From the NCBI RefSeq assembly GCF_023556315.2, contig NZ_CP116221.1:1933001-1997000 (forward strand): 64,000 nucleotides of DNA. The letters are read 5' to 3'. Positions 302-63,547 of the stretch are shown here, piece by piece. The translations under genes were made by a program, and so were the position numbers. The notes below the pieces were generated by a model. It searched no databases and was not told the origin of the DNA. It saw nothing but the letters and a program-made list of their open reading frames with translations. The stretch's first letter is position 1; each line of letters begins with the position of its first letter. This stretch comes from Psychroserpens ponticola. GTDB lineage: Bacteria > Bacteroidota > Bacteroidia > Flavobacteriales > Flavobacteriaceae.

Positions 302-429
302 CAACGTGTATAACCAATTGCTTGGTTTGTGTGTACTCGGAAATTCCTATCGGAATTTCCTATTGGTTCGGTTTCTTTTGTTAACTTAGTTCTTGCCAAC
401 GCAACAAGCCATACACAAACACGTTGTAC
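296..429 (+). repeat. attC 1, subtype I
   Basis: R'' TTGTAAC, R' GTTGTAC. Apical stem GGAAATTCC/GGAATTTCC. Subtype I arms (CCAATTGC ... CGCAACAAGCC). R'' overlaps the preceding stop codon. Confidence 0.93.
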
Positions 430-447
430 CTAATTTAAAACCAACAA

Positions 448-1077
448 ATGATAAGCATTGATGAAATCAGAAATAACTATAAAGAATATTCTGATTTCGA
501 GATTGAAAAAATTGCTATTAATGAATCTAAGAGCTTAAGAAAAGAAGTACTTAAAGTTCTTACAGAAGAAATTGAAAAAAGAAAATTAGACGAATCCTTA
601 ATTACTTGGGTAAAAGTAGAAAATGATACTTTATCAAAATCCGAACAAGAATCTCTAATAAGAAAAATTGAAAAACTTCCATGCCCAAACTGTGGAGAAA
701 GAAACAATACAATTGGTGGATTTGAATTTAAAAGAGTTTTATCAATCTTAATTTTTTACTCTAGCTTCATCGAAAATAGAATAATGTGTTTTGATTGTGG
801 CAAAAGAAAAAAGAGGAACTCAATACTTATTATTTTACTTTCTGGATGGTGGTCAATTAAAGGACTTCTCTTTACTCCTTTTACTTTAATAAATGAGATT
901 CTAAGTATATCATCTCTTGATGAGAAAAGTTCAGAAATATTAAATAGTTTTTTAGAAAAGAATACTGGTTTAATTAGACTACATGGAGATAAATCTGAAA
1001 ATTTAATTGGTTTAATAGATTTACACAATAATGATTACGAAATAATAGAAACTGAAATTATTGAAGATGAACAATAA
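448..1077 (+). CDS. Zinc-ribbon protein with a hydrophobic segment, unknown function
   Basis: A 209-residue protein. Residues 1-70 are helical and charged. A CPNCGE pair near residue 79 and a CFDCGK pair near 115 form a likely zinc ribbon. They flank and precede hydrophobic stretches (about 90-105 and 124-145), so the protein may be membrane associated. The ATG lies 24 bases after the cassette boundary and the stop 8 bases before R''. It is the only gene of its cassette, whose ends are complementary (GTTGTACCTA and TAGGTACAAC). I do not recognise a named family. Confidence 0.75.
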   Translation: MISIDEIRNNYKEYSDFEIEKIAINESKSLRKEVLKVLTEEIEKRKLDESLITWVKVENDTLSKSEQESLIRKIEKLPCPNCGERNNTIGGFEFKRVLSILIFYSSFIENRIMCFDCGKRKKRNSILIILLSGWWSIKGLLFTPFTLINEILSISSLDEKSSEILNSFLEKNTGLIRLHGDKSENLIGLIDLHNNDYEIIETEIIEDEQ

Positions 1078-1085
1078 AAAACTAG

Positions 1086-1218
1086 GTACAACAACGTGTA
1101 TAACCAATTGCTTGGTTTGTGTGTACTCGGAAAATCCTGCGGATTTTCCTAATGGCTAGTTTCTTTTTGTTAACTTAGTTCTTGCCAACGCAACAAGCCA
1201 TACACAAACACGTTAGGC
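1086..1218 (+). repeat. attC 2, subtype I
   Basis: R'' GTACAAC, R' GTTAGGC. Apical stem GGAAAATCC/GGATTTTCC with TGC loop. Confidence 0.94.
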
Positions 1219-1234
1219 ACAATTAAAACGAACA

Positions 1235-1747
1235 TTGATAAAGACAAGTTACAAATCGCATCCAATTAAAGGGTTTACTCACTCAATCGGAACTAAACAG
1301 GTTTCGGAAATGTTGAGCGGAATTGAAATTTATGACGATTTATCAATTTCATTTGACAAAGAAAAAGGTCATCGAATGGGAGTTTCTGTTCCTGGTTGGA
1401 ATGGAAGAACTATGAAAGGACAATCAAGAGAACTTTTAGGGTTTTGGAGAGTGATTTCTGGAACTTACTCAAAACCTTTAGACAAATGGACTATAAATTT
1501 AAAAGCGGTTGAAATAGAAAACAATAAGCGGATTAAAAAATTCCTCATAGAAATCGGAATCCCACTCTTGCGGAATTGGTTTGAATCTGAAAAACCGGAG
1601 ACTTGGTATAATGGACATCGGAATTTCCTAATTGGATTAAATGAAAATCTGACTGAATATTGTACTTGGGAAACGCACAATGATAGAACAGTTAATAAGA
1701 AAACTGAATTAATTAGCACCTTAAAAAAATTGAATGAAAGTTCTTGA
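1235..1747 (+). CDS. Unknown cassette protein, first gene of a two-gene cassette
   Basis: A 170-residue soluble protein starting at TTG. No in-frame ATG exists nearer the cassette boundary and the frame is well conserved in composition from this point. The sequence is rich in W and G (VSVPGWNGRTMKG, ETWYNGHRNFL) with no signal peptide or membrane segment. Its last 14 bases overlap the start of the next gene, which suggests translational coupling. I recognise no family. The pair could be a toxin/immunity or antitoxin unit, but nothing in the sequence proves that. Confidence 0.65.
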   Translation: MIKTSYKSHPIKGFTHSIGTKQVSEMLSGIEIYDDLSISFDKEKGHRMGVSVPGWNGRTMKGQSRELLGFWRVISGTYSKPLDKWTINLKAVEIENNKRIKKFLIEIGIPLLRNWFESEKPETWYNGHRNFLIGLNENLTEYCTWETHNDRTVNKKTELISTLKKLNESS

Positions 1748-1988
1748 CCAACATAACATTAGTGCGTTGAGTAAAATTATATACCAGACCAATATTATAC
1801 CATCTGGTAAAAGCGATTCTTTTAGAAAATTAAGCAAAAAACTAATTCTTGACTTGCAGAATGGTTACGAATTGGAAAAAATAAAAAGAGTAATAACAAG
1901 CGAATTAATTACTACATATGGACTTTCTGTGAATGAAAATGATGTAGAGAAAATAACGGAATTAATTTACTCGTGGTATGATAAATAA
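1734..1988 (+). CDS. Small helical protein, second gene of a two-gene cassette
   Basis: An 84-residue protein whose ATG lies inside the end of the preceding gene in another frame. It is charged and mostly helical (LSKKLILDLQNGYELEKIKRVITSELITTYG), without signal peptide or membrane segment. It ends 4 bases before R''. The overlap suggests it is translated together with the upstream gene and may bind its product. No family recognised. Confidence 0.6.
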   Translation: MKVLDQHNISALSKIIYQTNIIPSGKSDSFRKLSKKLILDLQNGYELEKIKRVITSELITTYGLSVNENDVEKITELIYSWYDK

Positions 1989-1992
1989 CTGT

Positions 1993-2127
1993 GCCTAACA
2001 ACGTGTATAATTAATTGCTTTGGTAAGTGCTTATTTGGAAAATTCCTTCGGAATTTTCTCGCGTTCGTTTTTGTTTACTAAATTAGTTGCTTAAACACGC
2101 AACTAACCATACACAAACACGTTGTAT
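1993..2127 (+). repeat. attC 3, subtype II
   Basis: R'' GCCTAAC, R' GTTGTAT. Apical stem GAAAATTCC/GGAATTTTC with TTC loop. Arms ATTAATTGCTTTGG ... CACGCAACTAACC. Confidence 0.93.
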
Positions 2128-2549
2128 TTAATAATGCCAGCCTTTCTGATCTTCCCAGGTTTATTGCCATCATCAAAACTTGTAGATTAAGGTCAGTACT
2201 CTAAAAGCAGTACGGAATTGACTTTCGATAGATTTTTTTCCTTGTCAAGCTTTCGATTGAAATCGTATGAGAGTTTTACTCTCAAATACGAATGAATTCG
2301 CATAAAGCTTGCCTTAAGGTATAGAATATTTTCGACAAAGTCAAGTAATTACCCAAATACTTATCATTTAAAGTGCTGAATACTTTAATACGCAACAACT
2401 TTTAATGATCGCTTTTAAAATGACGATACCATATCCCGCGATATAGTACATAATTTGAAAACCATAAACCGGATTCAGAATCTGTTATGTAGCGTCTGTC
2501 ATTCCTACGTAATTATGGAGATTCCCTATGGTCATTTCCAAATTACTAA
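2122..2549 (+). other. Gene-less cassette NC-A, copy 1
   Basis: No convincing reading frame on either strand. By eye the body and its attC are identical to the units at 23407 and 41992. The centre (about 2216-2345) folds into one long imperfect hairpin. Its outer arms are TTGACTT...AAGTCAA, its middle arms CAAGCTTT...AAAGCTTG and its tip CGTATGAGAG/CTCTCAAATACG. A smaller GTACT/AGTAC hairpin precedes it near 2186-2205. Likely roles are a structured RNA or a structured single-stranded DNA element. No promoter of the TAnnTTTG type was found. Confidence 0.75.
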
Positions 2550-2684
2550 AAACAACAGCGTGTATAATTAATTACTTGTTCCTCTTATATTTGGAATATT
2601 TATTACCATAAATAAAATGGTTAGTTTCTTTTTGCTAATTTAGTAATAACAAAACGTAACTAATCATACACGTCTACGTTGCAA
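2550..2684 (+). repeat. attC 4, subtype V
   Basis: R'' AAACAAC, R' GTTGCAA. This subtype follows only the three NC-A copies. Distinctive boxes CAGCGTGTA and TACACGTCTACGTT. The centre TTGGAATATTTATTACC lacks the usual GG-rich stem. Confidence 0.9.
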
Positions 2685-2950
2685 CCAATTGCTCCAAATC
2701 CTAACTCCTATTTAAATTAAGTCAATAAATTTTAATTTTAGATCTATTGCTCACTCAAACTCTTGAAGGAGAAGCTTACTCAAACTCTATACAAAAAAAG
2801 AAAAGGTTTCTTACTCTAACGGATTTTGAGCTTGTTTGCGGAACGTTCTACTCAAACGGCTAATTCTGCTTACTCAAACTCGCTAAATGTGATTACTCCT
2901 GCTTCAACGCTCTAAGTAAAACGTGCTTACTCTACTCTGTCGCAAAAGTG
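2679..2950 (+). other. Gene-less cassette NC-B, copy 1
   Basis: No conserved reading frame. The only small frame (from ATGCAACC in copy 2, 43984) is stopped after a dozen codons here. The body consists of spaced copies of YTTACTCaaACTC: GCTCACTCAAACTC, GCTTACTCAAACTC, TTCTTACTCTAACG, GTTCTACTCAAACG and others. It ends with a block also found in NC-C (GATTACTCCTGCT...CTCTAA...TTACTC...TGTCGC). Copies at 31794 and 43984. Confidence 0.7.
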
Positions 2951-3083
2951 ATGCAACAACGTGTATAATTAATTACTGCGGAATTTCCCAAATGGAAATT
3001 CACAATAATTAATTAACTTAGCTGCTAATCGGAAAATGACTTACGCCCTTTTCCGTAACTAATCATACACAAACACGTTGTAT
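2951..3083 (+). repeat. attC 5, subtype IV
   Basis: R'' ATGCAAC, R' GTTGTAT. Two internal hairpins instead of one: GAATTTCC/GGAAATTC inside TAATTAATT arms, and CGGAAAA/TTTTCCG further on. Confidence 0.92.
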
Positions 3084-3102
3084 GCAATTTAAACCGAACT
3101 GA

Positions 3103-3603
3103 ATGCGAATTATAATGAACTTACTTCTTTTTTTAATTCTTACGTCATGTGAAAAAGAATGTAAGCTAAAACCAATAGACGAAAGTGTATTCGACTTAAA
3201 TAAAATAAACAACAAATATTATCTTACTTCTGACAAAAGTGAAATTGACAGTATAACACTAATAGAAAAGATTGATTTTTATGAAAAGACTTCTTTTAAA
3301 GGTCCAATGAATTACAGAGAATGTCAACATGTCAAATCTTATATTGTGGATTTTCAAGACAAAGAAATTCAAATTCATTTAACCAAGAGAGAAAATGGTG
3401 ATTATGAATTGAATCTTTTCAGCCAATGTATTTCGTCAATCGATGGTTTTAAAGTAAATCCGTCTGAATTGACAAATAATAAATTTGTTTTCGAAAGAAC
3501 AAGTTGTGGACTAGGTAAATCAAATATTGAACAAATTATACTGAATGGTTACAAAATTGAATCTATAAAAACAGTTGATAAGAAAACTTGGAAATTGGAA
3601 TAA
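3103..3603 (+). CDS. Small SPII lipoprotein, unknown function
   Basis: A 166-residue protein with a short lipoprotein signal (MRIIMNLLLFLILTSC; lipobox LTSC, cysteine 16). The start with arginine is preferred over the second ATG four codons on because it gives a positive n-region. The mature part has several cysteines (CEKECKLK, YRECQH, SQCISS, TSCGLG) and no recognised domain. It is the only gene of the cassette, and the cassette ends match (GTTGTATGCA and TGCATACAAC). Confidence 0.75.
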   Translation: MRIIMNLLLFLILTSCEKECKLKPIDESVFDLNKINNKYYLTSDKSEIDSITLIEKIDFYEKTSFKGPMNYRECQHVKSYIVDFQDKEIQIHLTKRENGDYELNLFSQCISSIDGFKVNPSELTNNKFVFERTSCGLGKSNIEQIILNGYKIESIKTVDKKTWKLE

Positions 3604-3613
3604 CAAAAACTGC

Positions 3614-3745
3614 ATACAACAACGTGTATAACCAATTGCTTGGTTCTAGCCTACTTGGAAATTCCTACGGAATTTCCTCTGGTTCGTTTTCTTTTGTTAA
3701 CTTAGTTCTCGCCAACGCAACAAGCCATACACGAACACGTTGCCA
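3614..3745 (+). repeat. attC 6, subtype I
   Basis: R'' ATACAAC, R' GTTGCCA. Apical stem GGAAATTCC/GGAATTTCC. Confidence 0.93.
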
Positions 3746-3887
3746 GTAATATTGCCCCATCCTGAATAAAGACTATATAATTTTAAACATTATGTATAAA
3801 TATGACAAAGTAATTAGGCGTTAAAAATTGTGATGACATTATCAAACCCGTACGATGCATTATAAATAACTCTTAAGTAATTAAATT

Positions 3888-4310
3888 ATGAAAACACTAT
3901 TTAAAAGTATCTTACTGCTTTCTATCTTTCTTTTATCTTCTTGTAATAAGGATTCAAATGATGATGATGATTATGATGATGTTAGAAATAATGCCGAACT
4001 TATTATGGGTGTATGGCAAATTGAAACAAGATTAATAAATAACAACCCTCAAAATCTAGATAATTGTGAAATATTGGAAACAATATCATTTTCTGAAGAC
4101 CTTATTTATGATAAGGTAACATTTTCTGGAAATTCTTGTGAAATAGAAACACAGACAACAGGTACTATAACTTATAATAATGAAGAAACTAACTTTACAG
4201 TAATTGGTCAGAATTTTGGCTTTAGAGCTTTTATACTAAATATCGATGAAAATAACTTAACCTTAGCCTACGATGAATCTGAGTTAGAAGAACGTTTTAC
4301 AAAATTGTAA
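3888..4310 (+). CDS. Lipocalin-like SPII lipoprotein
   Basis: A 140-residue protein. Residues 1-18 form a lipoprotein signal with lipobox LSSC. A D-rich linker (SNDDDDYDD) follows, then a short beta domain beginning IMGVWQIETRLIN. This matches the GxWxL pattern of the small lipocalin-like domains common in Bacteroidetes lipoproteins. The 140-base leader between the cassette boundary and the ATG is longer than in most cassettes and may hold a promoter, though I see no TAnnTTTG box. A broken gene follows in the same cassette. Confidence 0.7.
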   Translation: MKTLFKSILLLSIFLLSSCNKDSNDDDDYDDVRNNAELIMGVWQIETRLINNNPQNLDNCEILETISFSEDLIYDKVTFSGNSCEIETQTTGTITYNNEETNFTVIGQNFGFRAFILNIDENNLTLAYDESELEERFTKL

Positions 4311-4434
4311 TTTTATTTTACATTTTCTTCTAATTGAAAACTAAACTCTAATGGGTTTTTATAAAATTCATTGAAATACAAGGTTTTTTCAGAGATTTTA
4401 TTCTAAGAATTAATTATTATTCAAAACAAAAATG

Positions 4435-4617
4435 ACTCAAAGCAAATACAACTTACAAACGAAAAAAAGTTGATTATAAACTTAAAGACAATTACTCTTT
4501 TGCAGATATTGAGTTGGATTCAATACAAAGTGGAACTTATAAATAAACGGAATTCTACGTTTTTATCATAGAGAAGGTAAATTTGACATTCCATTTGATA
4601 AAATATTTGAAGTGTAA
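4435..4617 (+). pseudogene. Frameshifted remnant of a second gene in the same cassette
   Basis: One frame reads KVDYKLKDNYSFADIELDSI and continues to GTYK before a stop near 4543. The frame shifted by one base continues sensibly as NGILRFYHREGKFDIPFDK to a stop at 4615-4617, just before R''. Joining both gives a continuous protein tail, so a single-base change broke the gene. The N-terminus is not identifiable, so the left limit is approximate. Family unknown. Confidence 0.5.
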
Positions 4618-4627
4618 TAAAAACTAC

Positions 4628-4761
4628 TGGCAACACCGTGTATAACCAATTGCTTGGTCTGTGTGTACCCGGAAAATCCTGCGGATTTTCCTACTGGTTC
4701 GTTTTCTTTTTGCTAACTTAGTTCTCGCCAACGCAACTAGCCATACACAAAACCGTTGTAC
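4628..4761 (+). repeat. attC 7, subtype I
   Basis: R'' TGGCAAC followed by ACCGTGTATA, R' GTTGTAC. Apical stem GGAAAATCC/GGATTTTCC. Confidence 0.93.
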
Positions 4762-4773
4762 AACATTTGAGAA

Positions 4774-5400: not shown

Positions 5401-5516
5401 CCAATTGCTTGGTTTGTGTGTACTCGGAAAATCCTATCGGATTTTCCTAATGGTTCGGTTTATTTTGCTAACTTAGTTCTCGCCAACGCAACTAGCCATA
5501 CACAAAACCGTTGTGC
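5383..5516 (+). repeat. attC 8, subtype I
   Basis: R'' GTACAAC, R' GTTGTGC. Apical stem GGAAAATCC/GGATTTTCC with TATC loop. Supplies the stop codon of the preceding gene. Confidence 0.93.
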
Positions 5517-5539
5517 TTCATTATGAGAACCGATAATCA

Positions 5540-6322
5540 ATGATAAAATTCTTTAGAAAAATACGATACGATCTTATGGAAAAAAATAAAACTGGAAAGT
5601 ATTTTAAATATGCTATTGGTGAAATTGTACTTGTGGTAATTGGAATTTTGATTGCTCTTCAAATCAATAATTGGAATGAAAACCGAAAAGCTTCAAACGA
5701 AGAAATTAAGATTTTGAATGCTCTGGATGCGGACTTTAAAGTTTCTAAAGAAAGAATAGGAAAAACTCTTGGATCTCAATCCAAGGTAATGAGCCATAGT
5801 CAAGCTCTAGCAGGAATTTATGAAAGACATAATAAAAAAGAGTATCAATATTTTGATACAAATTTAGATTCTTTAAGTCATCTTATTGCTTATAGCACTT
5901 CCTGGTATAGAGCTGAACCAGTTACAGGAGCCTACAATTCTTTGATTAGTGCTGGTAAAATTGACTTAATACAAAATGAAAATTTAAGAAATTTATTAGC
6001 CCAGTTTATTGCAGACTTTGAATCTGGTTTTGAGGACCAAGAATCTTCAATGAAATTATTAGAAAATCTTAATAATGAAACTAGTCATTTCATATTTAAA
6101 ATAGCCAGCAATAAAATGAGACATTATTTAGGTTATAATTCGAGAAAAATTAATAGTCTGACCATCTCCGAGACTTTCTTTACAAATGATTCTTATTTTG
6201 GAAATCTATTTTTGAAATCTATTGATGAGTTTAACAGATTAGAAAGACAAAAACAGATGTTGGAACAAGTAAATTCTATTTTAAATATTATTAAACAAGA
6301 ATTAGAAAATAAATTGAGTTGA
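5540..6322 (+). CDS. DUF6090 family membrane protein (paralogue 1 of 4)
   Basis: A 260-residue protein with the N-terminus typical of this Bacteroidetes family: basic start MIKFFRKIRYDLMEKNKTGKYFKYA, one membrane segment (about residues 28-44, IGEIVLVVIGILIALQI) and the exit motif NNWNENR. The rest is a mainly helical soluble domain. Function is not known for the family. Paralogues lie at 15349, 16254 and 35123. All four share the cassette start GTTGTGCTTCATTAT and the end AACGAAAGCACAAC or a close variant, so they descend from one cassette, but their C-terminal domains have diverged strongly. Confidence 0.85.
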   Translation: MIKFFRKIRYDLMEKNKTGKYFKYAIGEIVLVVIGILIALQINNWNENRKASNEEIKILNALDADFKVSKERIGKTLGSQSKVMSHSQALAGIYERHNKKEYQYFDTNLDSLSHLIAYSTSWYRAEPVTGAYNSLISAGKIDLIQNENLRNLLAQFIADFESGFEDQESSMKLLENLNNETSHFIFKIASNKMRHYLGYNSRKINSLTISETFFTNDSYFGNLFLKSIDEFNRLERQKQMLEQVNSILNIIKQELENKLS

Positions 6323-6333
6323 AAATAACGAAA

Positions 6334-6465
6334 GCACAACAACGTGTATAATTAATTGCTCGTTTTGTGTGTACTCGGAAAATCCTGCGGATTTTCCTCT
6401 GGTTCGTTTTCTTTTACTAACTTAGTTGTAGCCAACGCAACTAACCATACACGAACACGTTGGTA
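6334..6465 (+). repeat. attC 9, subtype I/II hybrid
   Basis: R'' GCACAAC, R' GTTGGTA. Left arm ATTAATTGC of subtype II, right arm AACTTAGTTGTAGCCAACGC of subtype I. Apical stem GGAAAATCC/GGATTTTCC. Confidence 0.92.
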
Positions 6466-6810
6466 ACAATAGCTCCAAAATTGTAACTCTTATTCAAATT
6501 CACTTACTAAAATTGCAACTTCAGAACTATTGCCACTCTTGCTCTTAAAGTTGAAAGCTTACTCAAACTCTAAAACTCATTGTAGCGAAAAAAAGCCTGG
6601 TTTTCTTTTCGCGATTTTTTTTTGAGGTTAAGACACATTCACTAAAAAACTGTCTTGATGAAAAATTTATTTTTTTAAAAACGTTTTTAAGCTAGTTTGC
6701 GGAACTTTTCACTCATTCTCTTAAGGTTTTCTTACTCTTCTCGCTAAATGTGATTACTCCTGCTCCAACACTCTAATCTGAATGTGATTACTCTAATGTG
6801 TCGCTACAGT
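6460..6810 (+). other. Gene-less cassette NC-C, copy 1 (short form)
   Basis: No credible frame on either strand. Layout: AACAATAGCTCC start, AACTATTGCC, then ACTC-containing repeats, a terminator (6585-6623), a T/A-rich spacer, AGTTTGCGGAA, then AATGTGATTACTC twice around CTGCTCCAACACTCTAATCTG, ending TGTCGCTACAGT. The short form has AAACGTTTTTAA in place of the ATG-palindrome segment of the long form. Copy at 37531. Confidence 0.72.
6585..6623 (+). terminator. Hairpin plus T-tract in NC-C copy 1
   Basis: Stem GCGAAAA/TTTTCGC around a loop with AGCCTGG, followed after GA by nine T residues. Reads as an intrinsic terminator on the + strand. Confidence 0.65.
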
Positions 6811-6942
6811 TGCCAACAACGTGTATAATTAATTACTGCGGAATTTCCAAACGGAAATTCACAATAATTAATTAACTTAGCTGCTAATCGGAAAATGACT
6901 AACGCCCTTTTCCGTAACTAATCATACACAAAACCGTTGCCA
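6811..6942 (+). repeat. attC 10, subtype IV
   Basis: R'' TGCCAAC, R' GTTGCCA. Hairpins GAATTTCC/GGAAATTC and CGGAAAA/TTTTCCG. Confidence 0.92.
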
Positions 6943-6947
6943 CACAT

Positions 6948-7544: not shown

Positions 7545-7552
7545 AAAACGTG

Positions 7553-8092: not shown

Positions 8093-8226
8093 TGCCAACA
8101 ACGTGTATAACCAATTGCTCTGTTTCTGCATACTCGGAAATTCCTATCGGAATTTCCTATTGGTTCGGTTTCTTTTGTTAACTTAGTTCTCGCCAACGCA
8201 ACAAGCCATACACAAAACCGTTAGCC
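8093..8226 (+). repeat. attC 12, subtype I
   Basis: R'' TGCCAAC, R' GTTAGCC. Apical stem GGAAATTCC/GGAATTTCC with TATC loop. Same NC-C body as copy 1 but a different attC subtype. Confidence 0.93.
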
Positions 8227-9704: not shown

Positions 9705-9838
9705 TGCCAACAACGTGTATAACCAATTGCTTGGTTTGTGTGTACTCGGAAATTCCTATCGGAATTTCCTATTGGTTCGGTTTCTTTTGTTAACTTAGTT
9801 CTTGCCAACGCAACTAGCCATACACAAAACCGTTAACA
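9705..9838 (+). repeat. attC 14, subtype I
   Basis: R'' TGCCAAC, R' GTTAACA. Apical stem GGAAATTCC/GGAATTTCC. Confidence 0.93.
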
Positions 9839-10301
9839 ACAATAGTGCAAAAATTCAACAGCACTACTCTATTTGAACTATTGTTTTAAATACAAAAATC
9901 TCTAATTTCTCATTTAAGATTTTCGTTTATCATTTTTTGGAGAACTAAACGCTTTTTGGTTTGTTTTTGTTTATTAAGTTATAGCTAGAAAACTCTCAAG
10001 ATAATTTCTTACTTCAATGGTAAACAGTTTATTTTTAAGATAATATGTTCGTTCATTTAAAATTGTTTTTTCGTAAATCAGCCAAATTATCGCTAGCGTT
10101 CTGTATCGTTCTAAAATCCAAAAAAGGTGTTCGTTATTATTCTTGTGGAGCAACCTAAATGCTATTATGGACGTTTCTCTTTTGCCAAATCAACGGTTTC
10201 TTGGGAGTATCAGCTAATGTTAGTTATAGCATTCTCTTTCGGTTGCTGTGAAGTATATAGCTAGTTCTGTGATTTACCAATGACTTGTGCTGCACTACAG
10301 T
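9833..10301 (+). other. Gene-less cassette NC-D, copy 1
   Basis: No credible frame. Recurrent landmarks in all copies: start AACAACAATAGTGCAAAAATTC, hairpin AAAATCTC..AAGATTTT, CATTTTTTGGAGAACTAAACGC, AACTCTCAAGA, GCGTTCTGTATCGTTC, CAAAAAAGGTGTTCG, CAACCTAAATGCTATTATGGAC, ATCAACGGTTTCTTGGGAG, CAATGACTTGTGCTGCACTACAG. The long stretches conserved between copies, including many C/G positions in AT-rich DNA, argue for a sequence-dependent role. Confidence 0.75.
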
Positions 10302-10433
10302 TGCTAACAACGTGTATAATTAATTACTGCGGAATTTCCAATCGGAAATTCACAATAATTAATTAACTTAGCTGCTAATCGGAAAATGACTTACGTCCTT
10401 TTCCGTAACTAATCATACACAAAATCGTTAACA
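10302..10433 (+). repeat. attC 15, subtype IV
   Basis: R'' TGCTAAC, R' GTTAACA preceded by AAAATC instead of AAACAC or AAAACC. Double hairpin. Confidence 0.92.
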
Positions 10434-31666: not shown

Positions 31667-31799
31667 GCCTAACAACGTGTATAACCAATTGCTTGGTCAT
31701 AGCCTACTTGGAAATTCCTAACGGAATTTCCTCTGGTTCGTTTTCTTTTGTTAACTTAGTTCTCGCCAACGCAACAAGCCATACACAAACACGTTGTAA
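31667..31799 (+). repeat. attC 38, subtype I
   Basis: R'' GCCTAAC, R' GTTGTAA. Apical stem GGAAATTCC/GGAATTTCC with TAAC loop. Confidence 0.93.
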
Positions 31800-32071
31800 C
31801 CAATAGCTCCAAATCCTAACTCCTTCTCATATTAAGTTACTATAATTTAAACTTTATTACTTCTTATTCTCACTCAGTCCCTTAAAGTTGAAGCTTACTC
31901 AAACTCTTAAATTTAAAAAAGGAAAAGGTTGCTCACTCTAACGGATTTTGAGCTGGTTTGCGGAATGTTCTACTCAAATGGCGAGAACTGCTTACTCAAA
32001 CTCGCTAAATGTGATTACTCTTGCTTCAACACTCTAAGTAAACGTGCTTACTCTAATCTGTCGCTAAAGTG
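31794..32071 (+). other. Gene-less cassette NC-B, copy 3 (divergent)
   Basis: Shares with NC-B copies CCAATAGCTCCAAATCCTAACTCC, GAAGCTTACTCAAACTC, GGATTTTGAGC..GTTTGCGGAA and the ACTC repeats, but begins GTTGTAAC instead of GTTGCAAC. The end box is changed in parallel to TCACAAC. No gene seen. Confidence 0.68.
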
Positions 32072-32204
32072 TCACAACAACGTGTATAATTAATTACTGC
32101 GGAATTTCCCAAACGGAAATTCACAATAATTAATTAACTTAGCTGCTAATCGGAAAATGACTTACGCCCTTTTCCGTAACTAATCATACACAAAACCGTT
32201 AGGT
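32072..32204 (+). repeat. attC 39, subtype IV
   Basis: R'' TCACAAC, R' GTTAGGT. Double hairpin. Confidence 0.92.
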
Positions 32205-43855: not shown

Positions 43856-43989
43856 TGCCAACAACGTGTATAACCAATTGCTCTGTTTCTGCATACTCGG
43901 AAATTCCTATCGGAATTTCCTATTGGTTCGGTTTCTTTTGTTAACTTAGTTCTCGCCAACGCAACAAGCCATACACAAAACCGTTGCAA
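43856..43989 (+). repeat. attC 54, subtype I
   Basis: R'' TGCCAAC, R' GTTGCAA. Apical stem GGAAATTCC/GGAATTTCC. Near identical to attC 12 after another NC-C long form. Confidence 0.93.
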
Positions 43990-44256
43990 CCAATTGCTCC
44001 AAATCCTAACTCCTTTTTAAATTCAGTCTATAAGTTTATAATTTTAGATCTATTGCTCACTCAAACTCTTGAAGGAGAAGCTTACTCAAACTCTATACAA
44101 AAAAAGAAAAGGTTTCTTACTCTAACGGATTTTGAGCTTGTTTGCGGAACGTTCTACTCAAACGGCTAATTCTGCTTACTCAAACTCGCTAAATGTGATT
44201 ACTCCTGCTTCAACGCTCTAAGTAAAACGTGCTTACTCTACTCTGTCGCAAAAGTG
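43984..44256 (+). other. Gene-less cassette NC-B, copy 2
   Basis: Nearly identical to the copy at 2679 apart from the region TTTTTAAATTCAGTCTATAAG. A 61-codon frame is open here but broken in copy 1, so it is not a gene. Confidence 0.72.
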
Positions 44257-44389
44257 ATGCAACAACGTGTATAATTAATTACTGCGGAATTTCCCTAACG
44301 GAAATTCACAATAATTAATTAACTTAGCTGCTAATCGGAAAATGACTTACGCCCTTTTCCGTAACTAATCATACACAAAACCGTTCTAC
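44257..44389 (+). repeat. attC 55, subtype IV
   Basis: R'' ATGCAAC, R' GTTCTAC. Double hairpin. Confidence 0.91.
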
Positions 44390-44405
44390 GCAATTTGAGA
44401 AAAAT

Positions 44406-44436
44406 TTTGCAATCATACCAATTTTTGGTATATTTG
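44406..44436 (+). promoter_or_regulatory. Promoter and palindromic operator of parDE-like operon 2
   Basis: TTTG (44406-44409), 19-base spacer, TATATTTG (44429-44436). The palindrome TACCAA-TTT-TTGGTA (44416-44430) overlaps the -7 box by two bases exactly as in operon 1. Confidence 0.74.
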
Positions 44437-44453
44437 ATATAAATAGTATCAAA

Positions 44454-44705
44454 ATGAACAAAAACACATCAATATCACTCGGAAATTATTTTGACCAATT
44501 TGTGCAAAGTAGTATTAGTGAAGGAAGATTTAAAAACGTTAGCGAAGTAATACGAGCAGGATTAAGACTTTTGGAAGAAGAAGAAAGTAAAGTAATTGCA
44601 TTGAAAAAAGCAATTCAAGAAGGAATAGACAGCGGAATAGCGCACGATTTTGACCCGAAAAAACATCTTGAATCTCTAAAAGCCAAAAAGCACTCGAATG
44701 GCTGA
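44454..44705 (+). CDS. ParD-like antitoxin
   Basis: An 83-residue ribbon-helix-helix antitoxin (NKNTSISLGNYFDQFVQSSISEGRFKNVSEVIRAGLRLLEEEESKVIALKKAIQEG). It overlaps the toxin gene by 8 bases. The cassette has the rare box GTTCTAC, matched by GTAGAAC at its end. A close relative of 29792, but in a cassette with different ends. Confidence 0.9.
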   Translation: MNKNTSISLGNYFDQFVQSSISEGRFKNVSEVIRAGLRLLEEEESKVIALKKAIQEGIDSGIAHDFDPKKHLESLKAKKHSNG

Positions 44706-44997
44706 ATATAAACTAACGAATAAAGCTGTTGCGGATTTATCAAAAATTTGGGAATATACATTTGAGGTTTGGTCGGAAAAACAAGCCGATAAATATTACG
44801 ATGGACTAATCTCAAATTGTGAGGAAATTGCTGAAAACCCAGATTTAGGAAAGAATTATGCAGGAATTTCAAAGCAACTTTTAGGAATAAAATCAAATCG
44901 ACATATAATATTCTATAGAACTTTAAACGAAAATTATGTTGAGATTACGAGAATATTACACGAAAGAATGGATTTAAAAAAAAGAATAGCTGAATAA
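44698..44997 (+). CDS. ParE-like toxin
   Basis: A 99-residue ParE family toxin: YKLTNKAVADLSKIWEYTFEVWSEKQADKYYDGL, ENPDLGKNYAGI, LLGIKSNRHIIFYRTL and ITRILHERMDLKKRI at the C-terminus. Family role is gyrase inhibition. It lies 15 kb from its relative at 30036. Confidence 0.9.
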   Translation: MAEYKLTNKAVADLSKIWEYTFEVWSEKQADKYYDGLISNCEEIAENPDLGKNYAGISKQLLGIKSNRHIIFYRTLNENYVEITRILHERMDLKKRIAE

Positions 44998-45004
44998 AAA
45001 CTGC

Positions 45005-45137
45005 GTAGAACACCGTGTATAATTCATTGCTGGTTATAGCCTACTTACGAAAGTCCTCGCGGACTTTCTATCTGTGTTTTATTTGCTAACTTTAGTGCTT
45101 AAACCACGCAACGAAATCATACACAAACACGTTGGCA
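45005..45137 (+). repeat. attC 56, subtype III
   Basis: R'' GTAGAAC with ACCGTGTATA, R' GTTGGCA. Apical stem GAAAGTCC/GGACTTTC. Confidence 0.92.
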
Positions 45138-55552: not shown

Positions 55553-55567
55553 AATAAAAAAACGAAA

Positions 55568-55698: not shown

Positions 55699-55713
55699 GT
55701 AATTTATCCAAAA

Positions 55714-56433: not shown

Positions 56434-56441
56434 AAAACTAC

Positions 56442-57153: not shown

Positions 57154-57158
57154 GTAAT

Positions 57159-58271: not shown

Positions 58272-58279
58272 AATACTAC

Positions 58280-58412
58280 AGCCAACAACGTGTATAACCA
58301 ATTGCTGGTCTGTGTGTACTCGGAAATTCCTATCGGAATTTCCTATTGGTTCGGTTTCTTTTGCTAACTTAGTTCTCGCCAACGCAACTAGCCATACACA
58401 AAACCGTTGCCA
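58280..58412 (+). repeat. attC 71, subtype I
   Basis: R'' AGCCAAC, R' GTTGCCA. Apical stem GGAAATTCC/GGAATTTCC. Confidence 0.93.
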
Positions 58413-58417
58413 CACAT

Positions 58418-59014: not shown

Positions 59015-59022
59015 AAAACGTG

Positions 59023-59155
59023 AGGCAACAACGTGTATAACCAATTGCTTGGTTATAGCCTACTTGGAAATTCCTAACGGAATTTCCTCTGGTTCGGTTT
59101 CTTTTGTTAACTTAGTTCTTGCCAACGCAACAAGCCATACACAAACACGTTGTAG
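59023..59155 (+). repeat. attC 72, subtype I
   Basis: R'' AGGCAAC, R' GTTGTAG. Apical stem GGAAATTCC/GGAATTTCC. Confidence 0.93.
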
Positions 59156-59167
59156 CACATTAGAGAA

Positions 59168-59743
59168 ATGAACGTTTTAGAAGAAAATATAGCGGAATTT
59201 AAAACTGACTTTCCAAAAAGTTGGTCTTTTCTTTGGTCACCAGAAGATGCCGAAAAAATTTCTGAAGAACATAAAGACCAAATCTATTTTCTGAATAAAA
59301 AAGGAACTGAAATTGTAAAGGAATATTTGAATTCTTCTAAAATGTTGGGTTACTCAACTGGTACTGATTGGAGTCCATTTACTAAAGATTATTTCAAAAC
59401 CGAAAATAAATTTCAAGTCTACGAAAACTGTGATTCTGAAATTAAAAAATGGCTTTACAATCTTGGAATCCCATTTGACAAATATGTGTTTGTAGATTCT
59501 GATAATTCTGGACAAGCAATAATGCTAACTTGGAAAATGGTAATTAAATATTGGGAAGGAATGTTTTGGGATACTGACCTGACAATATTTGACGGAAGTC
59601 TGAATTGGGCATTATATTACTATCATGAAAGTCAGCTCTTTTTTGGAAAGGATAATATATTTGACCAAGAAGCAGAATATGATAAAAATCTTGAACAGAA
59701 TAAATTACTAAACGAAATAAAAAATAGAATAAATAACATATGA
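59168..59743 (+). CDS. Immunity-like protein, first gene of a pair
   Basis: A 191-residue acidic soluble protein. The C-terminal stretch WDTDLTIFDGSLNWALYYYHESQLFFGKDNIFD has the pattern often seen at the end of small immunity or SMI-related proteins. The middle has FDKYVFVDSDNSGQAIMLTWKMVIKYWEGMFW. The next gene overlaps by 4 bases (ATGA). Family not certain. Confidence 0.65.
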   Translation: MNVLEENIAEFKTDFPKSWSFLWSPEDAEKISEEHKDQIYFLNKKGTEIVKEYLNSSKMLGYSTGTDWSPFTKDYFKTENKFQVYENCDSEIKKWLYNLGIPFDKYVFVDSDNSGQAIMLTWKMVIKYWEGMFWDTDLTIFDGSLNWALYYYHESQLFFGKDNIFDQEAEYDKNLEQNKLLNEIKNRINNI

Positions 59744-60174
59744 GCAAGTGGTTATTGAGAAAAGCATCAGGTTCAAGGGCAAAATATAAGTCAAATGGCG
59801 ATTTTTCAGATAATCGAAATTCTAGCGAAAACGTTGATTTTGATAATCTTCCTCTAAAGGAATCTATGCGTAATAAAAATTATCATAAAACATATTTAGA
59901 CACAACTTTAGTAAAACGATGGTTAAATTCTAAGTTAGGTCAAGATTTTGATTCTATATATTCTGAGTTTTTAACAAGAATTCAGCCAAAATATTTGGAT
60001 GAATATCGTGATTGTATATTCTGGTATGTAGCAAAGAGCGAAGATGTAGAAATTAAAGAAAATGGTGACGTTTGGGGCAAATGGTATGGACAATTTGTTA
60101 AACTTCCATATTCAAGACAAATGACTTTTTATGTAAATCCAACTACTAATAAACTCATTAGAATATCGAAATAA
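59740..60174 (+). CDS. Unknown protein, second gene of a pair
   Basis: A 144-residue basic protein: an S/N-rich N-terminus (SKWLLRKASGSRAKYKSNGDFSDNRNSSENVDFDN), then a folded part with KYLDEYRDCIFWYVAKSEDVEIKENGDVWGKWYGQFVKLPYSRQMTFYVNP. Coupled to the immunity-like gene by a 4-base overlap. The basic, aromatic C-terminal half could be a small toxin domain, but no family is recognised. Confidence 0.63.
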   Translation: MSKWLLRKASGSRAKYKSNGDFSDNRNSSENVDFDNLPLKESMRNKNYHKTYLDTTLVKRWLNSKLGQDFDSIYSEFLTRIQPKYLDEYRDCIFWYVAKSEDVEIKENGDVWGKWYGQFVKLPYSRQMTFYVNPTTNKLIRISK

Positions 60175-60179
60175 ACGTG

Positions 60180-60313
60180 CCACAACAACGTGTATAACCA
60201 ATTGCTTGGTTTGTGTGTACTAGGAAAATCCTTTCGGATTTTCCTACTGGTTCGGTTTATTTTACTAACTTAGTTCTCGCCAACGCAACTAGCCATACAC
60301 AAACACGTTGTAC
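60180..60313 (+). repeat. attC 73, subtype I
   Basis: R'' CCACAAC, R' GTTGTAC. Apical stem GGAAAATCC/GGATTTTCC with TTTC loop. Confidence 0.93.
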
Positions 60314-60345
60314 CTAATTTTAGAGCCAAGTTATAATAGAAAAGT

Positions 60346-61320
60346 TTGTACAATCTATTTGACATAAATGAACCTGAAAAAATCTGCGAATATCGTGGTG
60401 AAACTTATCGTGTAAGAGAAAACGGTTCTATTTTCAGATTACAAAGAAGAAACAAAAGAAAAAGACCATTAGATGAAAAATGGACTTTCGGTACACCTGA
60501 TAAACAGTATGGTTATTGGAATTTTGCATCGGAAAAAGTTCATAGAATTGTAGCGACTGCTTATCATGGGAAACAACCTTCAGAAAAACACGTCGTTGAC
60601 CATATTGACACTAACAGGAAAAATAATAGACCTGACAACTTAAGATGGATAACGAGATTAGAAAACATTTTGCTCAATCCCATAACTCTATCAAGAATAA
60701 TTTTAAAATACGGAAGTATTGACAATTTCCTGGTAAATCCATCCAAACCAATTGACGGAAAACTTGAACAAAATTTTGACTGGATGAGAACGGTTACCAA
60801 GGAAGAATCGGACTATACTAGAAAGAATTTAGAAAATTGGGCTAAAGAGGGTAAAATACCAAAAGGAGGTCAATTAGGAGAATGGATATTCACAAATCTT
60901 AATAAACAAACTGAAATTTATGTTGAGGAAAATCCACTAACTGATTCTCTAACATATAATGCAATTCAAAAAAATTGGAAAACCCAAAGCGAGTTTCCAA
61001 ATTGTCCAGCTAAAACAAATGATAGTTCAATCGAGAGTTACAAGAAAAGTCTGACTAAAGGAACTACCTTTTCCATAAATCAATATGGCAAATCTTCGGT
61101 TGAACACTCTGAATTATCAGAAAACAAAAGCGAATTAGTTGTATTAACGACTAGTGATAGTATGAAACCATTTGCGCTAGCAAAAGTTTATATTCAAAAT
61201 GAAAAGTTTATTCACGAAAGTTTAGGCACATTTTTTACCTTAATTGGAGCACAAAAATATTTCAACCTAGCATTAGGACTTGAATGGCATGGAGAAGATT
61301 CGATAGATGACTATTGTTGA
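60346..61320 (+). CDS. HNH endonuclease
   Basis: A 324-residue protein starting at TTG (YNLFDINEPEK follows; no ATG is near). HNH core: H66 in KVHRIVATAYHG, VVDHIDTNRKNNRPDNLRWITRLENILLNP at residues 83-111 with D85, H86 and N98. The rest, from 115 to 324, is unlike homing endonucleases and ends in a small domain (FALAKVYIQNEKFIHESLGTFFTLIGAQKYFNLALGLEW). It faces the YaaC-like gene with 48 bases between the stops. A defence role for the pair is inferred from this arrangement. Confidence 0.8.
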   Translation: MYNLFDINEPEKICEYRGETYRVRENGSIFRLQRRNKRKRPLDEKWTFGTPDKQYGYWNFASEKVHRIVATAYHGKQPSEKHVVDHIDTNRKNNRPDNLRWITRLENILLNPITLSRIILKYGSIDNFLVNPSKPIDGKLEQNFDWMRTVTKEESDYTRKNLENWAKEGKIPKGGQLGEWIFTNLNKQTEIYVEENPLTDSLTYNAIQKNWKTQSEFPNCPAKTNDSSIESYKKSLTKGTTFSINQYGKSSVEHSELSENKSELVVLTTSDSMKPFALAKVYIQNEKFIHESLGTFFTLIGAQKYFNLALGLEWHGEDSIDDYC

Positions 61321-61368
61321 CACAAAAAACAAGATTCAGCAACGTTAATAATTTCTGAATACCTAATA

Positions 61369-62391
61369 TTATCTTTCTATTTTGCTCATTTCTAAAATTA
61401 ATTCTATAACTAATTCTGGAAAAGATTCTTCAACATACCCTTGAAGTCTGTTAATGACTGGCCAATAATTATCGCCAACACCACCATTTATCAATTGAGT
61501 CCAATGTGTTGGATAGTATCTAACTAACATTCCCAAAAAGTAAGATGCCAAAAAGGTCATTCCGAGTTGTGAATAACGTACATTATTGTCAAACGGTTTG
61601 CTAACATAAAGACCTGGAATAGAACCAAATGTTTTTTGAACATAAGAATGGATAAATTGTGGTTTATGAGAATTAAAGTTATCAATATCAGATGTTATAG
61701 TTGTCCAACCTGAAACCTCTGACATTTTATATCCATTATCTGAAAACCATTTTTTGAATGGTTCCAATTCCTTCTGACGAACTTTACACTTAAAACCAAC
61801 ATCTTCTGATAATTTAAATTCATTAACTGTCGAATAAAGTGCTTTATCTTTTAATTGCTTAAAATCTTGAGCTAAATCCGGTAATCTTGAAAGAATTTGT
61901 CCAAATGTAATTGTTTGGTCTTGGGGAGGAATTGGATATGTTGTTATCCAGTCAACACCTGAAGAACTAATATGGAAAGACATAATATTTTCGGTAGTAT
62001 TAATAAAATCTGTAAACAGGCCTGCAGTAGTTTTAACTTTTAAATCACCTATTTTTTTAAGGGTCAGATTTAAATCCCCAGATAATTCATTCGACCAACT
62101 TTCCGTTGTTAAACCATGACCAGCTGTTAGACCTTCTTCCCCACCTCTTTGCTTCATAAATAAAGTTAAAGCACGACTTAAACTTGATACACCGTAAAAA
62201 ACTAATAATGGTCTTACTGAAAAACTTGCATTATTCGCATTTCGGAAATATTCTCGAGCTTGTTTCGCTGAGGAATTAATCTCTTTAGCTCGTCTTGTGT
62301 TTAAAGTATTATCAAAAATTTTCTTATATATATTTTTAACATACTCTTGACTTTCTAAAGAAAGAAGACTTTGCCATACTTCTTTGTTCAT
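61369..62391 (-). CDS. YaaC-like protein
   Basis: A 340-residue soluble protein with the YaaC family look: SSAKQAREYFRNANNASFSVRPLLVFYGVSSLSRALTLFM at residues 40-79, then RQGGEEGLTAGHGL-like loop, IDWITTYP-like strand, and the C-terminal helical part FLASYFLGMLVRYYPTHWTQLINGGVGDNYWPVINRLQGYVEESFPELVIELIL. Function unknown; relatives occur in defence islands. Convergent with the HNH gene in the same 2.1 kb cassette. Has its own promoter. Confidence 0.75.
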   Translation of the reverse strand: MNKEVWQSLLSLESQEYVKNIYKKIFDNTLNTRRAKEINSSAKQAREYFRNANNASFSVRPLLVFYGVSSLSRALTLFMKQRGGEEGLTAGHGLTTESWSNELSGDLNLTLKKIGDLKVKTTAGLFTDFINTTENIMSFHISSSGVDWITTYPIPPQDQTITFGQILSRLPDLAQDFKQLKDKALYSTVNEFKLSEDVGFKCKVRQKELEPFKKWFSDNGYKMSEVSGWTTITSDIDNFNSHKPQFIHSYVQKTFGSIPGLYVSKPFDNNVRYSQLGMTFLASYFLGMLVRYYPTHWTQLINGGVGDNYWPVINRLQGYVEESFPELVIELILEMSKIER

Positions 62392-62405
62392 GTTATTAGT
62401 TTTGG

Positions 62406-62436
62406 TAAAGGTAGTTTGTTGGCGATTAAGAACAAA
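62406..62436 (-). promoter_or_regulatory. Promoter of the minus-strand YaaC-like gene
   Basis: On the minus strand: TTTTG (core at 62433-62436), 19-base spacer, TACCTTTA (62406-62413), one base off TAnnTTTG. The ATG follows about 15 bases later. Confidence 0.6.
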
Positions 62437-62441
62437 ACTAG

Positions 62442-62576
62442 GTACAACAACGTGTATAATTCATTGCTTTGGCAAGTGCTTATTTGGAAAATTCCTTCGG
62501 AATTTTCTCGCGTTCGTTTTTGTTTACTAAATTAGTTGCTTAAACACGCAACTAACCATACACAAGACCGTTGGCA
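62442..62576 (+). repeat. attC 74, subtype II
   Basis: R'' GTACAAC, R' GTTGGCA. Apical stem GAAAATTCC/GGAATTTTC. Confidence 0.92.
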
Positions 62577-62596
62577 AACATTGAATGCAACACTAA

Positions 62597-63400
62597 ATGA
62601 GAAATCGTAAATCAGAGAATATTAGCAATATCAAAAAGACTTATATTGAAGTCTATAATTTTTTGAAAAAGCATCATATCCTGCTTTTGGTATTTCCAAC
62701 ACTTATTGGTGGAATTTGGCAATTAATTGAATTAGCAAATATTGACATAAGTTTTATCCGGTTTTTTTCTATAACTCAGTTAGTTTCTGACGGATTATTG
62801 GTTTTATCTTCTGCTTTTATTTTTATATTTATTTCTGCATTTTTATATTGGTTTATATCACTAATTTTGGATTCTAATTATAGACCTGAAAAGGATTTAG
62901 CACCTGTAAGAATATTCTTTTTTACAGGAATAATTTCAGCTATTTTCAGTATTGTATATATATTTCTAATTAAAAAGAACTTCTCAAATATTGAATTTAA
63001 CGCTTTCGATTTGACAGCTTGTGCGTTAGCTATAATTTCAATTTCAGTTTTTTATTTTTACAACAAACACAGTTTGAATTATCATAAATATGTAACTGAA
63101 TATGTTCGGAAATATATAGTATTTGCATACATTTCACATTTTTCATTAATACTTTCATTTGGAATTTTAGGAATTGGAACTATGGCTAAATTTCTTAATT
63201 ATGTTAATAATTCTACACTACCAACTAATTTAAAAAACATTCAGAATTTAGAAAAAAGTGTTAAAAAAGAATATTCAATCAATGATTTTGAAATTAAATA
63301 CTTCAACGACAAATTCATTTTTATTGAGTCAAATAAAAACAATGGGAATGAAATAATTATTTTGAAATTTGATAATTTTTTTAAAGAAATGCCAAATTGA
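62597..63400 (+). CDS. Polytopic membrane protein, unknown function
   Basis: A 267-residue protein with about five membrane segments (residues 29-46, 66-90, 107-126, 135-152, 171-198) and a soluble C-terminal domain of about 65 residues (NLKNIQNLEKSVKKEYSINDFEIKYFNDKFIFIESNKNNGNEIIILKFDNFF). The tail looks like a small alpha/beta sensor or effector domain. No family recognised. Confidence 0.72.
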   Translation: MRNRKSENISNIKKTYIEVYNFLKKHHILLLVFPTLIGGIWQLIELANIDISFIRFFSITQLVSDGLLVLSSAFIFIFISAFLYWFISLILDSNYRPEKDLAPVRIFFFTGIISAIFSIVYIFLIKKNFSNIEFNAFDLTACALAIISISVFYFYNKHSLNYHKYVTEYVRKYIVFAYISHFSLILSFGILGIGTMAKFLNYVNNSTLPTNLKNIQNLEKSVKKEYSINDFEIKYFNDKFIFIESNKNNGNEIIILKFDNFFKEMPN

Positions 63401-63412
63401 AAAACAACGATT

Positions 63413-63547
63413 TGCCAACACCGTGTATAATTCATTGCTTTGGCAAGTGCTTATTTGGAAAATTCCTTCGGAATTTTCTCGCGTTCGTTTTTGTTTACTA
63501 AATTAGTTGCTTTAACACGCAACTAACCATACACAAACACGTTAACA
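63413..63547 (+). repeat. attC 75, subtype II
   Basis: R'' TGCCAAC with ACCGTGTATA, R' GTTAACA. Apical stem GAAAATTCC/GGAATTTTC. Confidence 0.92.

What the first reader, a model, noticed from the sequence alone, without database searches (positions are those of the whole stretch)
424..63419. Cassette ends are complementary for 14-17 bases with a fixed A opposite C at position 11
In nearly every cassette the start and end pair far beyond the 7-base R box. Examples: start GTTGTATGCA-A-TTT and end AAA-C-TGCATACAAC; start GTTGTGCGTA-A-GCT and end AGC-C-TACGCACAAC; start GTTACCACAC-A-TTT and end AAA-C-GTGTGGTAAC. The box sequence varies from cassette to cassette but both ends change together. Position 11 is always A facing C, and pairing resumes after it. 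In the array each attC is flanked by two different cassettes, so this extra stem can form only in the excised circle. It would make the circle's attC longer and might favour insertion over excision, or it may be a scar of how cassettes are made.
Basis: partly seen in the sequence, partly recalled or inferred. Interest (0 to 1): 0.9.

Follow-up and report, generated by a model that had tools for sequence, protein, structure and literature searches.

The report
Wobble-marked hairpin stem of gene cassettes
Each mobile gene cassette in this huge bacterial gene array carries its own pair of matching ends that can fold into a hairpin, and one pair in that hairpin is nearly always the same wobble, which may tell the enzyme that moves cassettes which DNA strand and which arm to cut.

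Summary
In the 74 window cassettes the two ends pair cassette by cassette: 649 of 740 variable positions match, against at most 365 in 10,000 shuffles. Pairing covers positions 1-10, skips 11 and stops at 14. Position 11 is A in 74 of 74 starts; C faces it directly in 63 and after a one-base bulge in 8.

The array has 278 attC-like elements over 262 kb and starts 36 bp after the stop codon of a tyrosine recombinase gene. It looks like an integron, but the recombinase lacks the IntI-specific insert and groups apart from IntI. The rule finds a cassette start within 120 bp of the stop in 34 of 52 integrases.

On the bottom strand, the one that folds in known integrons, 'A opposite C' is a G.T wobble, one of several there: 459 G.T cells against 12 A.C.

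Pairing beyond the R box is published for classical integrons (9-11 nt; PMC2727003, passage) and I measured it in a Vibrio array. The fixed wobble, the sharp 14-bp stem and this integrase/attI layout look new. The circle-versus-array difference is real; an insertion bias is untested.

The parts
423..63419 (+). 74 complete gene cassettes (each GTT...AAC) separated by attC-like elements; part of a 262-kb array that continues on both sides
303..422 (+). attC-like element preceding cassette 1 (between AAC 300-302 and GTT 423-425), imperfect hairpin
423..436 (+). start arm of cassette 1, GTTGTACCTA-A-TTT
1079..1092 (+). end arm of cassette 1, complementary to 423-436 except A.C at position 11
5510..6340 (+). 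cassette 8: variant with a one-base bulge in the end arm next to the A.C pair (start CA, end TCG read as reverse complement)
2678..2957 (+). short cassette (280 nt) that breaks the C-at-11 rule; same type at 43983-44263, and a further exception at 31793-32078
44383..45011 (+). cassette 55; its ParD-like antitoxin ORF matches Pfam ParD. A homologous cassette plus attC in another genome (86% identical) differs at 3 of the 4 outer stem positions, on both ends
9832..10308 (+). member of the most amplified cassette family (31 copies in the array); no ORF over 59 aa

Best explanation
The matching ends are the two arms (R' and R'') of the outer stem of a cassette's folded attC site, in an integron-type system of Bacteroidota that uses its own tyrosine recombinase. 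Each cassette carries one arm at each end, so the arms meet next to the attC only when the cassette is a free circle; selection for folding then keeps them complementary while their sequence drifts from cassette to cassette. The stem is 14 bp, about the size of one tyrosine-recombinase half-site (recalled). The constant parts are GTT/AAC beside the cut and pair 11. Pair 11 is A.C on the top strand and therefore T.G on the bottom strand, T on the arm that is cut in known integrons (R') and G on the other. I propose that this wobble, with the fixed wobbles of the inner stem, marks the bottom strand and the R' arm for the integrase in a stem that otherwise has no fixed sequence. Shown: the pairing, the near-invariant bases, the array structure, cassette starts beside the integrase, and the G.T excess on the bottom strand. 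Inferred: that the bottom strand recombines here, that the integrase reads the wobble, and that circles insert.
For: Covariation of own ends far above shuffles, and none across array attC sites. The element travels with the cassette on its left: of 36 duplicate pairs with bodies at least 99.5% identical, the right element is at least 95% identical in 34, the left in 1. The pairing rule places a first cassette 26-42 bp after the integrase stop in 17 loci of this family, own included, all with TATAA just before the site (14 of 17 ATATAAC) (which lists hits only); with a stricter rule, within 120 bp in 34 of 52 integrases, against 14 of 1500 random intervals. Bottom-strand consensus fold of 120 diverse circle junctions: G.T 459 cells, A.C 12; near-fixed wobbles at three columns (119, 112 and 115 of 120); stem pair 11 is T.G in 107 of 120 and T.C in 10, probably the bulge type. 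Circle bottom strand folds better than top in 196 of 203. Start A at 11 in 274 of 275 unique cassettes of other genomes. In homologous cassettes stem changes fall on both ends at 128 positions against 12 one-sided (75 pairs, not independent).
Against: No recombination assay. The top strand also has a consensus fold of its own (alifold -8.8 against -11.6 for the bottom; 2709 Watson-Crick, 56 A.C, 14 G.T cells), so the bottom strand is favoured, not alone. The wobble at 11 gives little strand discrimination by itself (isolated stem -11.5 bottom, -10.8 top). One fixed G.T, next to the R box (col 17/157), has a counterpart in the Vibrio VCR, so not every wobble is peculiar to this class; without the five wobble-rich columns the G.T:A.C excess is about 37:11 (my count). 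Invariant A and C could equally be direct base contacts in double-stranded DNA. 33 of 275 intervals in relatives pair badly; 21 of the 25 shown are over 1,000 nt and may hide a missed element, which I did not check. 18 of 52 integrases gave no rule hit.
Confidence: 0.77

Rival explanations
1. Insertion ratchet: array attC sites cannot build the R stem, so cassettes insert well as circles but leave the array rarely.
For: At least 6 of 7 R-stem matches in 204 of 277 circles against 4 of 276 array sites; circle folds 4.8 kcal/mol better on average; the array is very long.
Against: The same kind of difference exists in a classical Vibrio array (median circle run 11, array run 5), so it does not by itself set this system apart. 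No rates are known here. The inner L stem could still form in the array (inference).
Confidence: 0.35
2. Hairpin-templated correction (quasi-palindrome repair, recalled) copies one arm onto the other, so both ends change in one event; selection acts mainly on pair 11.
For: Changes in homologues are mostly on both ends (128 positions against 12). Cassette 55 and its 86%-identical relative differ at 3 of 4 outer positions on both ends, while the adjoining 20 nt of the end flank differ at 2.
Against: Correction would also erase the A.C pair and the bulge unless they are selected. Stems are identical in 10 of 25 pairs at 35-45% protein identity, so changes are rare. In the same cassette-55 pair the start flank differs at 13 of 20 in the ungapped comparison, partly through a 2-nt shift. 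Few independent events.
Confidence: 0.3
3. A and C at position 11 are read by the integrase as bases in double-stranded attI/array DNA, and the wobble has no role of its own.
For: A is near-invariant in starts, which also form the right half of the occupied attI.
Against: C is near-invariant in ends, which are not part of the double-stranded cut site; several other columns of the hairpin also hold fixed G.T on the bottom strand.
Confidence: 0.2
4. Scar of cassette birth, for example snap-back copying, with no later function.
For: Both arms match closely in most cassettes.
Against: A scar decays at the rate of its flanks; here 11 of 43 pairs under 50% protein identity keep identical stems while flanks and attC elements are near random, and A.C persists in 201 of 207 (direct 176, bulge 25).
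Confidence: 0.05
5. Cassettes are transposons with terminal inverted repeats, unrelated to the attC-like elements.
For: The ends are inverted repeats. I did not search the cassettes for transposases.
Against: The element moves with the left cassette; the first cassette sits at a fixed place beside the integrase.
Confidence: 0.03

Closest known systems
Classical integrons, chromosomal superintegrons (Vibrio VCR arrays)
   Same: Head-to-tail gene+attC cassettes, G^TT boundary, cassette-specific R'/R'' pairing beyond 7 nt (to about 12 in Vibrio sp. HDW18; 9-11 nt in PMC2727003, passage), chimeric attC in the array. That attI lies beside the integrase and the element travels with its cassette in classical integrons is recalled.
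   Different: Vibrio pairing tapers off with no fixed mismatch and no resumption and shows one fixed G.T, beside the R box. Here the stem ends sharply at 14 with a near-invariant wobble at 11, the boxes are not GTTRRRY, and the integrase is not IntI.
IntI integron integrases (TIGR02249; PDB 2a3v)
   Same: Tyrosine recombinase; two-piece match, 198 bits.
   Different: Below the cut-off of 265; lacks about 42 residues between KG.KDR and H.LRH (64, against 105-107 in 24 of 27 IntI; in the other three the motif script matched elsewhere); separate group in the tree.
Reverse-oriented integrons of Spirochaetota (Treponema)
   Same: Reverse orientation is reported for typical Spirochaetota IntI (passage in PMC9668308); the layout of those arrays is recalled.
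   Different: Those are IntI integrases (PMC9668308 passage).
NF040815 XerA-like 'site-specific tyrosine recombinase/integron integrase'
   Same: Best NCBIfam match, 209.8 bits over residues 102-362.
   Different: Under the cut-off of 220; about 100 extra N-terminal residues.

Membership tests
Integron (functional definition: integrase + attI + attC cassettes) | Tandem cassettes, each with its own recombination site at the 3' end | tested here: met
   Duplicates keep the right element (34 of 36) and not the left (1 of 36)
Integron (functional definition: integrase + attI + attC cassettes) | Integrase gene adjacent, attI at the head of the array | tested here: met
   Rule-predicted first cassette 36 bp after the integrase stop; 34 of 52 integrases have one within 120 bp. 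attI itself is inferred from position and motif
Integron (functional definition: integrase + attI + attC cassettes) | attC folds as a single bottom strand with R and L stems and a central spacer | tested here: inconclusive
   Prediction agrees (bottom better in 196 of 203; G.T excess), but the top strand also has a consensus fold and nothing was probed
Integron (functional definition: integrase + attI + attC cassettes) | The integrase catalyses cassette insertion and excision | not testable with these tools
   needs an assay
IntI family | IntI-specific additional domain near patch III (PMC9668308 passage) | tested here: not met
   Insert absent: spacing 64 in 16 of 17 attI-linked integrases (motif not found in one) against 105-107 in 24 of 27 IntI
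IntI family | Score over TIGR02249 cut-off | tested here: not met
   198.3 against 265 bits for the window genome's integrase
IntI family | Phylogenetic placement inside IntI | tested here: not met
   27 IntI rows form one side of a branch, SH-aLRT 100; array integrases apart (quick tree, no bootstrap)
Classical attC | R boxes RYYYAAC / GTTRRRY | tested here: not met
   Position 5 is T in 90 and C in 35 of 207 starts, position 6 is C in 93
Classical attC | Extrahelical G and T in the L'' arm set strand choice | not tested
   I did not map extrahelical bases in these sites

The most novel reading that the evidence does not exclude
A class of integrons widespread in Bacteroidota, with its own recombinase lineage, co-directional integrase and attI just after the integrase stop, in which strand and arm choice are written into the attC hairpin as fixed G.T wobbles, above all pair 11 of a 14-bp stem whose other pairs are free to vary cassette by cassette.
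Probability: 0.5. Interest if true: 0.88.

Novelty: new variant of a known kind. Interest (0 to 1): 0.75.

Why it matters
To my knowledge the integrons studied so far are built on IntI, and how a hairpin with little fixed sequence tells the integrase which strand and arm to cut has been worked out only there. Here a separate recombinase lineage sits beside arrays of the same design, with 278 elements in this genome, and the hairpin carries a near-invariant wobble that can be changed one base at a time. That would make strand choice directly testable in a second system. The rule (GTT N7 A paired with C N7 AAC) is also a simple search key: in the fetched stretches it found cassette starts beside integrases, while the integrase of this genome scores below the IntI model's cut-off.

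Tried and rejected
Transposon-like TIRs and a birth scar were considered and set low (see rivals). Cassettes own227, own243 and G113_131 seemed to show stem changes between near-identical genes, but carry one IS3-like insertion sequence; I removed all pairs involving them from the later count. A search for classical attC by strict motif in 78 of the 80 IntI1-type loci (L188 and L193 left out) gave 12 cassettes, 9 unique, 5 well paired, one of them with A/G at position 11; too few, so the Vibrio array was used as the classical control instead. The 20 gammaproteobacterial stretches were used only for IntI proteins. The pattern counts (2 mismatches allowed) were often close to their own control and are not used as evidence. 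The 'GA' column is the same pairs read on the other strand, so it is no control; the other control columns were not all zero (0-4 hits per stretch). Rfam gave no match in the window. DNA searches in plasmids (window 1-25000, near) and phages (window 2948-3092, distant) gave nothing.

Literature: eight searches. By the titles and starts of abstracts listed, none is about such arrays in Flavobacteriaceae or Bacteroidota, and the 15 rows listed of 44 have no 'wobble'. The library holds only open PMC papers. Of IntegronFinder 2.0 (PMC9024848) I saw passages: only In0 in Bacteroidetes earlier, then one complete integron, in Salinibacter ruber, besides Chlorobi and Ignavibacteriae. Passages of PMC2426708, PMC8618304 and PMC9668308 name Bacteroidetes/Bacteroidota among groups with integrons or intI. 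Of PMC3053210 I saw one passage.
Full report
What was checked. The window is C1:1933001-1997000 of a 4.03-Mb single-contig genome. A motif scan that does not use the pairing found 278 attC-like elements in one orientation between C1:1838279 and about 2100650; 275 are 122-128 nt long and three were set at 187-198. 277 cassettes lie between them, 74 of them complete in the window. A first scan with other settings gave 277 elements and some orphans, so a few elements are missed or mis-set. I infer Bacteroidota, probably Flavobacteriaceae, from the very large family group in which relatives lie and the best named integrase match among plasmids, Chryseobacterium, 40.8%; no tool named it.

The pairing is real. 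In the window 649 of 740 variable positions match between a cassette's own ends, against a shuffle mean of 311 and maximum of 365 in 10,000; beyond the R box 378 of 444 against a maximum of 227. In 207 non-redundant cassettes (of 277; those sharing over a quarter of their 12-mers with a kept one dropped) mutual information is 0.9-1.6 bits at positions 4-9, 0.42 at 10, 0 at 11, and 0.41, 1.16 and 0.54 at 12-14, with shuffles below 0.11; positions 15 (0.154) and 16 (0.102) stay slightly above their shuffles although matching there is at chance. Ends paired across an array attC match no better than shuffled ends.

Position 11. The start is A in 207 of 207. The reverse complement of the end is G in 176, C in 25 (one-base bulge; G follows), T in 5 and A in 1. 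Position 10 mismatches in defined ways: AA facing TG in 43, CA facing TC(G) in 24. In other genomes: 310 intervals from 14 of 18 genomes examined (21 sequence chains; intervals outside 150-2600 nt dropped), 275 unique; start A in 274 of 275; end G in 229, C in 20, A in 20, T in 6; pairing .91 .91 .87 .84 .88 .91 at 4-9 and .82 .83 .72 at 12-14. 33 of the 275 pair badly; of the 25 shown, 21 are over 1,000 nt.

It is an integron-type array. Copies of one cassette keep the element to their right and not the one to their left: 34 of 36 and 1 of 36 at 95% identity, for bodies at least 99.5% identical; at 93-97% body identity 151 of 249 right elements reach 95% against 6 left. This puts the crossover at the right end of the element. 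If the rule is right, the first cassette's start must be the partner of the first R'' arm. That start lies 36 bp after the stop of a 391-aa tyrosine recombinase. One search lists 22 hits: 17 loci, own included, at 26-42 bp with TATAA just upstream in all 17, one (L106) at 70 bp with the same motif but a poor match, and four at 44-89 bp with other upstream sequence. With a stricter form of the rule 34 of 52 distinct integrases (those with at least 1300 bp downstream, of 61) have such a start within 120 bp; 18 do not. The control, random intervals in the same loci that include true starts, gave 14 of 1500. Some hits lie in other Bacteroidota families (loci L240, L241, L247, L249).

The integrase is not IntI. 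It scores 198 against a cut-off of 265 for TIGR02249. The distance from KG.KDR to H.LRH is 64 residues in 16 of 17 attI-linked proteins (no motif in one) and 105-107 in 24 of 27 IntI (for the other three the script matched another motif). In a quick maximum-likelihood tree the 27 IntI stand apart with support 100, and the 17 attI-linked integrases, with three more Bacteroidota rows, form a group with support 99. The gene is encoded in the direction of the array, upstream of it. Passages of PMC9668308 give the extra domain as a defining mark of IntI.

What A opposite C is. In known integrons the bottom strand of attC folds and recombines (PMC2727003, passages). On that strand the pair is T on the R' arm and G on the R'' arm. 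A consensus fold of 120 of 129 diverse circle junctions (of 467) gave 2429 Watson-Crick, 459 G.T, 12 A.C and 88 other cells; G.T is near-fixed at three columns (119, 112, 115 of 120) and frequent at two (51, 25). Orientation: G on the R'/L' arm in the near-fixed ones, T on the R' arm at stem pair 11 (T.G 107, T.C 10, T.T 2, T.A 1 of 120). Leaving out the five wobble-rich columns about 37 G.T and 11 A.C remain (my count). In the R stem alone (pos 4-9, 12-14) the top strand has 27 A.C against 13 G.T, and 114 other mismatches. The top strand has a consensus fold of its own, weaker (-8.8 against -11.6), with 2709 Watson-Crick, 56 A.C and 14 G.T cells; there too A.C outnumbers G.T on the top strand. 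I take this as selection on the bottom strand. A Vibrio VCR set (38 circle junctions) has 39 G.T, 38 of them at one column next to the R box, and 4 A.C; its two strands score alike (-20.7 and -20.5).

Circle against array. Predicted mean energies for 203 junctions: circle bottom -26.3, circle top -22.8, array bottom -21.5, array top -19.4 kcal/mol; bottom beats top in 196 circles and circle beats array on the bottom strand in 196. At least 6 of 7 R-stem matches occur in 204 of 277 circles and 4 of 276 array sites. The Vibrio array shows the same kind of difference, median run 11 against 5.

What was already known. PMC2727003 states that self-pairing can extend beyond the 7-nt boxes to 9-11 consecutive nt for most cassettes (passage). 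In Vibrio sp. HDW18 (42 cassettes, some of them copies) own pairing is .98 .98 1 .90 .86 .67 .60 .48 at positions 5-12 and near chance after that, without a fixed mismatch. So the extension is not new; the fixed wobble and the sharp 14-bp end were not found in that one control array.

How stems evolve. Among 75 homologous cassette pairs from 523 well-paired cassettes (of 587), IS-bearing ones removed, 36 have identical stems at 9 positions, near-identical copies included; in the rest 128 positions changed on both ends and 12 on one. Below 50% protein identity 11 of 43 stems are identical, while flanks and elements are near random. Pairs share members, so these are not independent events. The four outer positions (4-7) took 81 of the two-sided changes, the five inner ones (8, 9, 12-14) 47. 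One clean case: cassette 55 of the window and an 86%-identical cassette elsewhere, three concerted changes within the four outer positions. There are 96 distinct 10-base starts among 207, against 182 expected if positions were independent, so stems form a limited vocabulary.

Mechanism. Each cassette's R stem is a private, self-consistent half-site that is complete only in its own circle. The integrase can rely on GTT/AAC and on pair 11, and on helix shape elsewhere. The wobble makes the two arms and the two strands unequal. That step, the strand used and any insertion bias are inference.

Changes made on re-checking: the folding feature in the membership table was lowered from met to inconclusive and the confidence from 0.78 to 0.77, because the top strand's own consensus fold had been left out.

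Noticed in passing
window 9832-10308 and 30 further copies in the array; window 6459-6817 and 11 further copies: The two most amplified cassette types (31 copies of about 477 nt, 12 copies of about 416 nt) carry no clear ORF: the one member of each that I checked had none over 59 and 36 aa. They may be regulatory or selfish.
   Followed up: partly
C1:2036880-2039467 and 2052359-2054331, and one cassette of G113: The same IS3-like insertion sequence sits about 20 nt inside the start of three otherwise different cassettes, which may point to targeting of cassette starts.
   Followed up: partly
window, element ends just before GTT: The last bases of the element switch between AAACC and AACAC among copies of one cassette, not obviously tied to the next cassette.
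   Followed up: no
window 6818-6935 and 8100-8219: Copies of one cassette (GTTGGTAACA) carry different types of attC element with the same stem, so elements can be exchanged without touching the stem.
   Followed up: partly
L242, L243, L247, L249, L254, L256, L257 and others: Rule-obeying cassettes next to homologous integrases in other genera or families, first cassette 44-119 bp after the stop; in the four such loci printed the sequence before the site differs from the ATATAAC type.
   Followed up: partly
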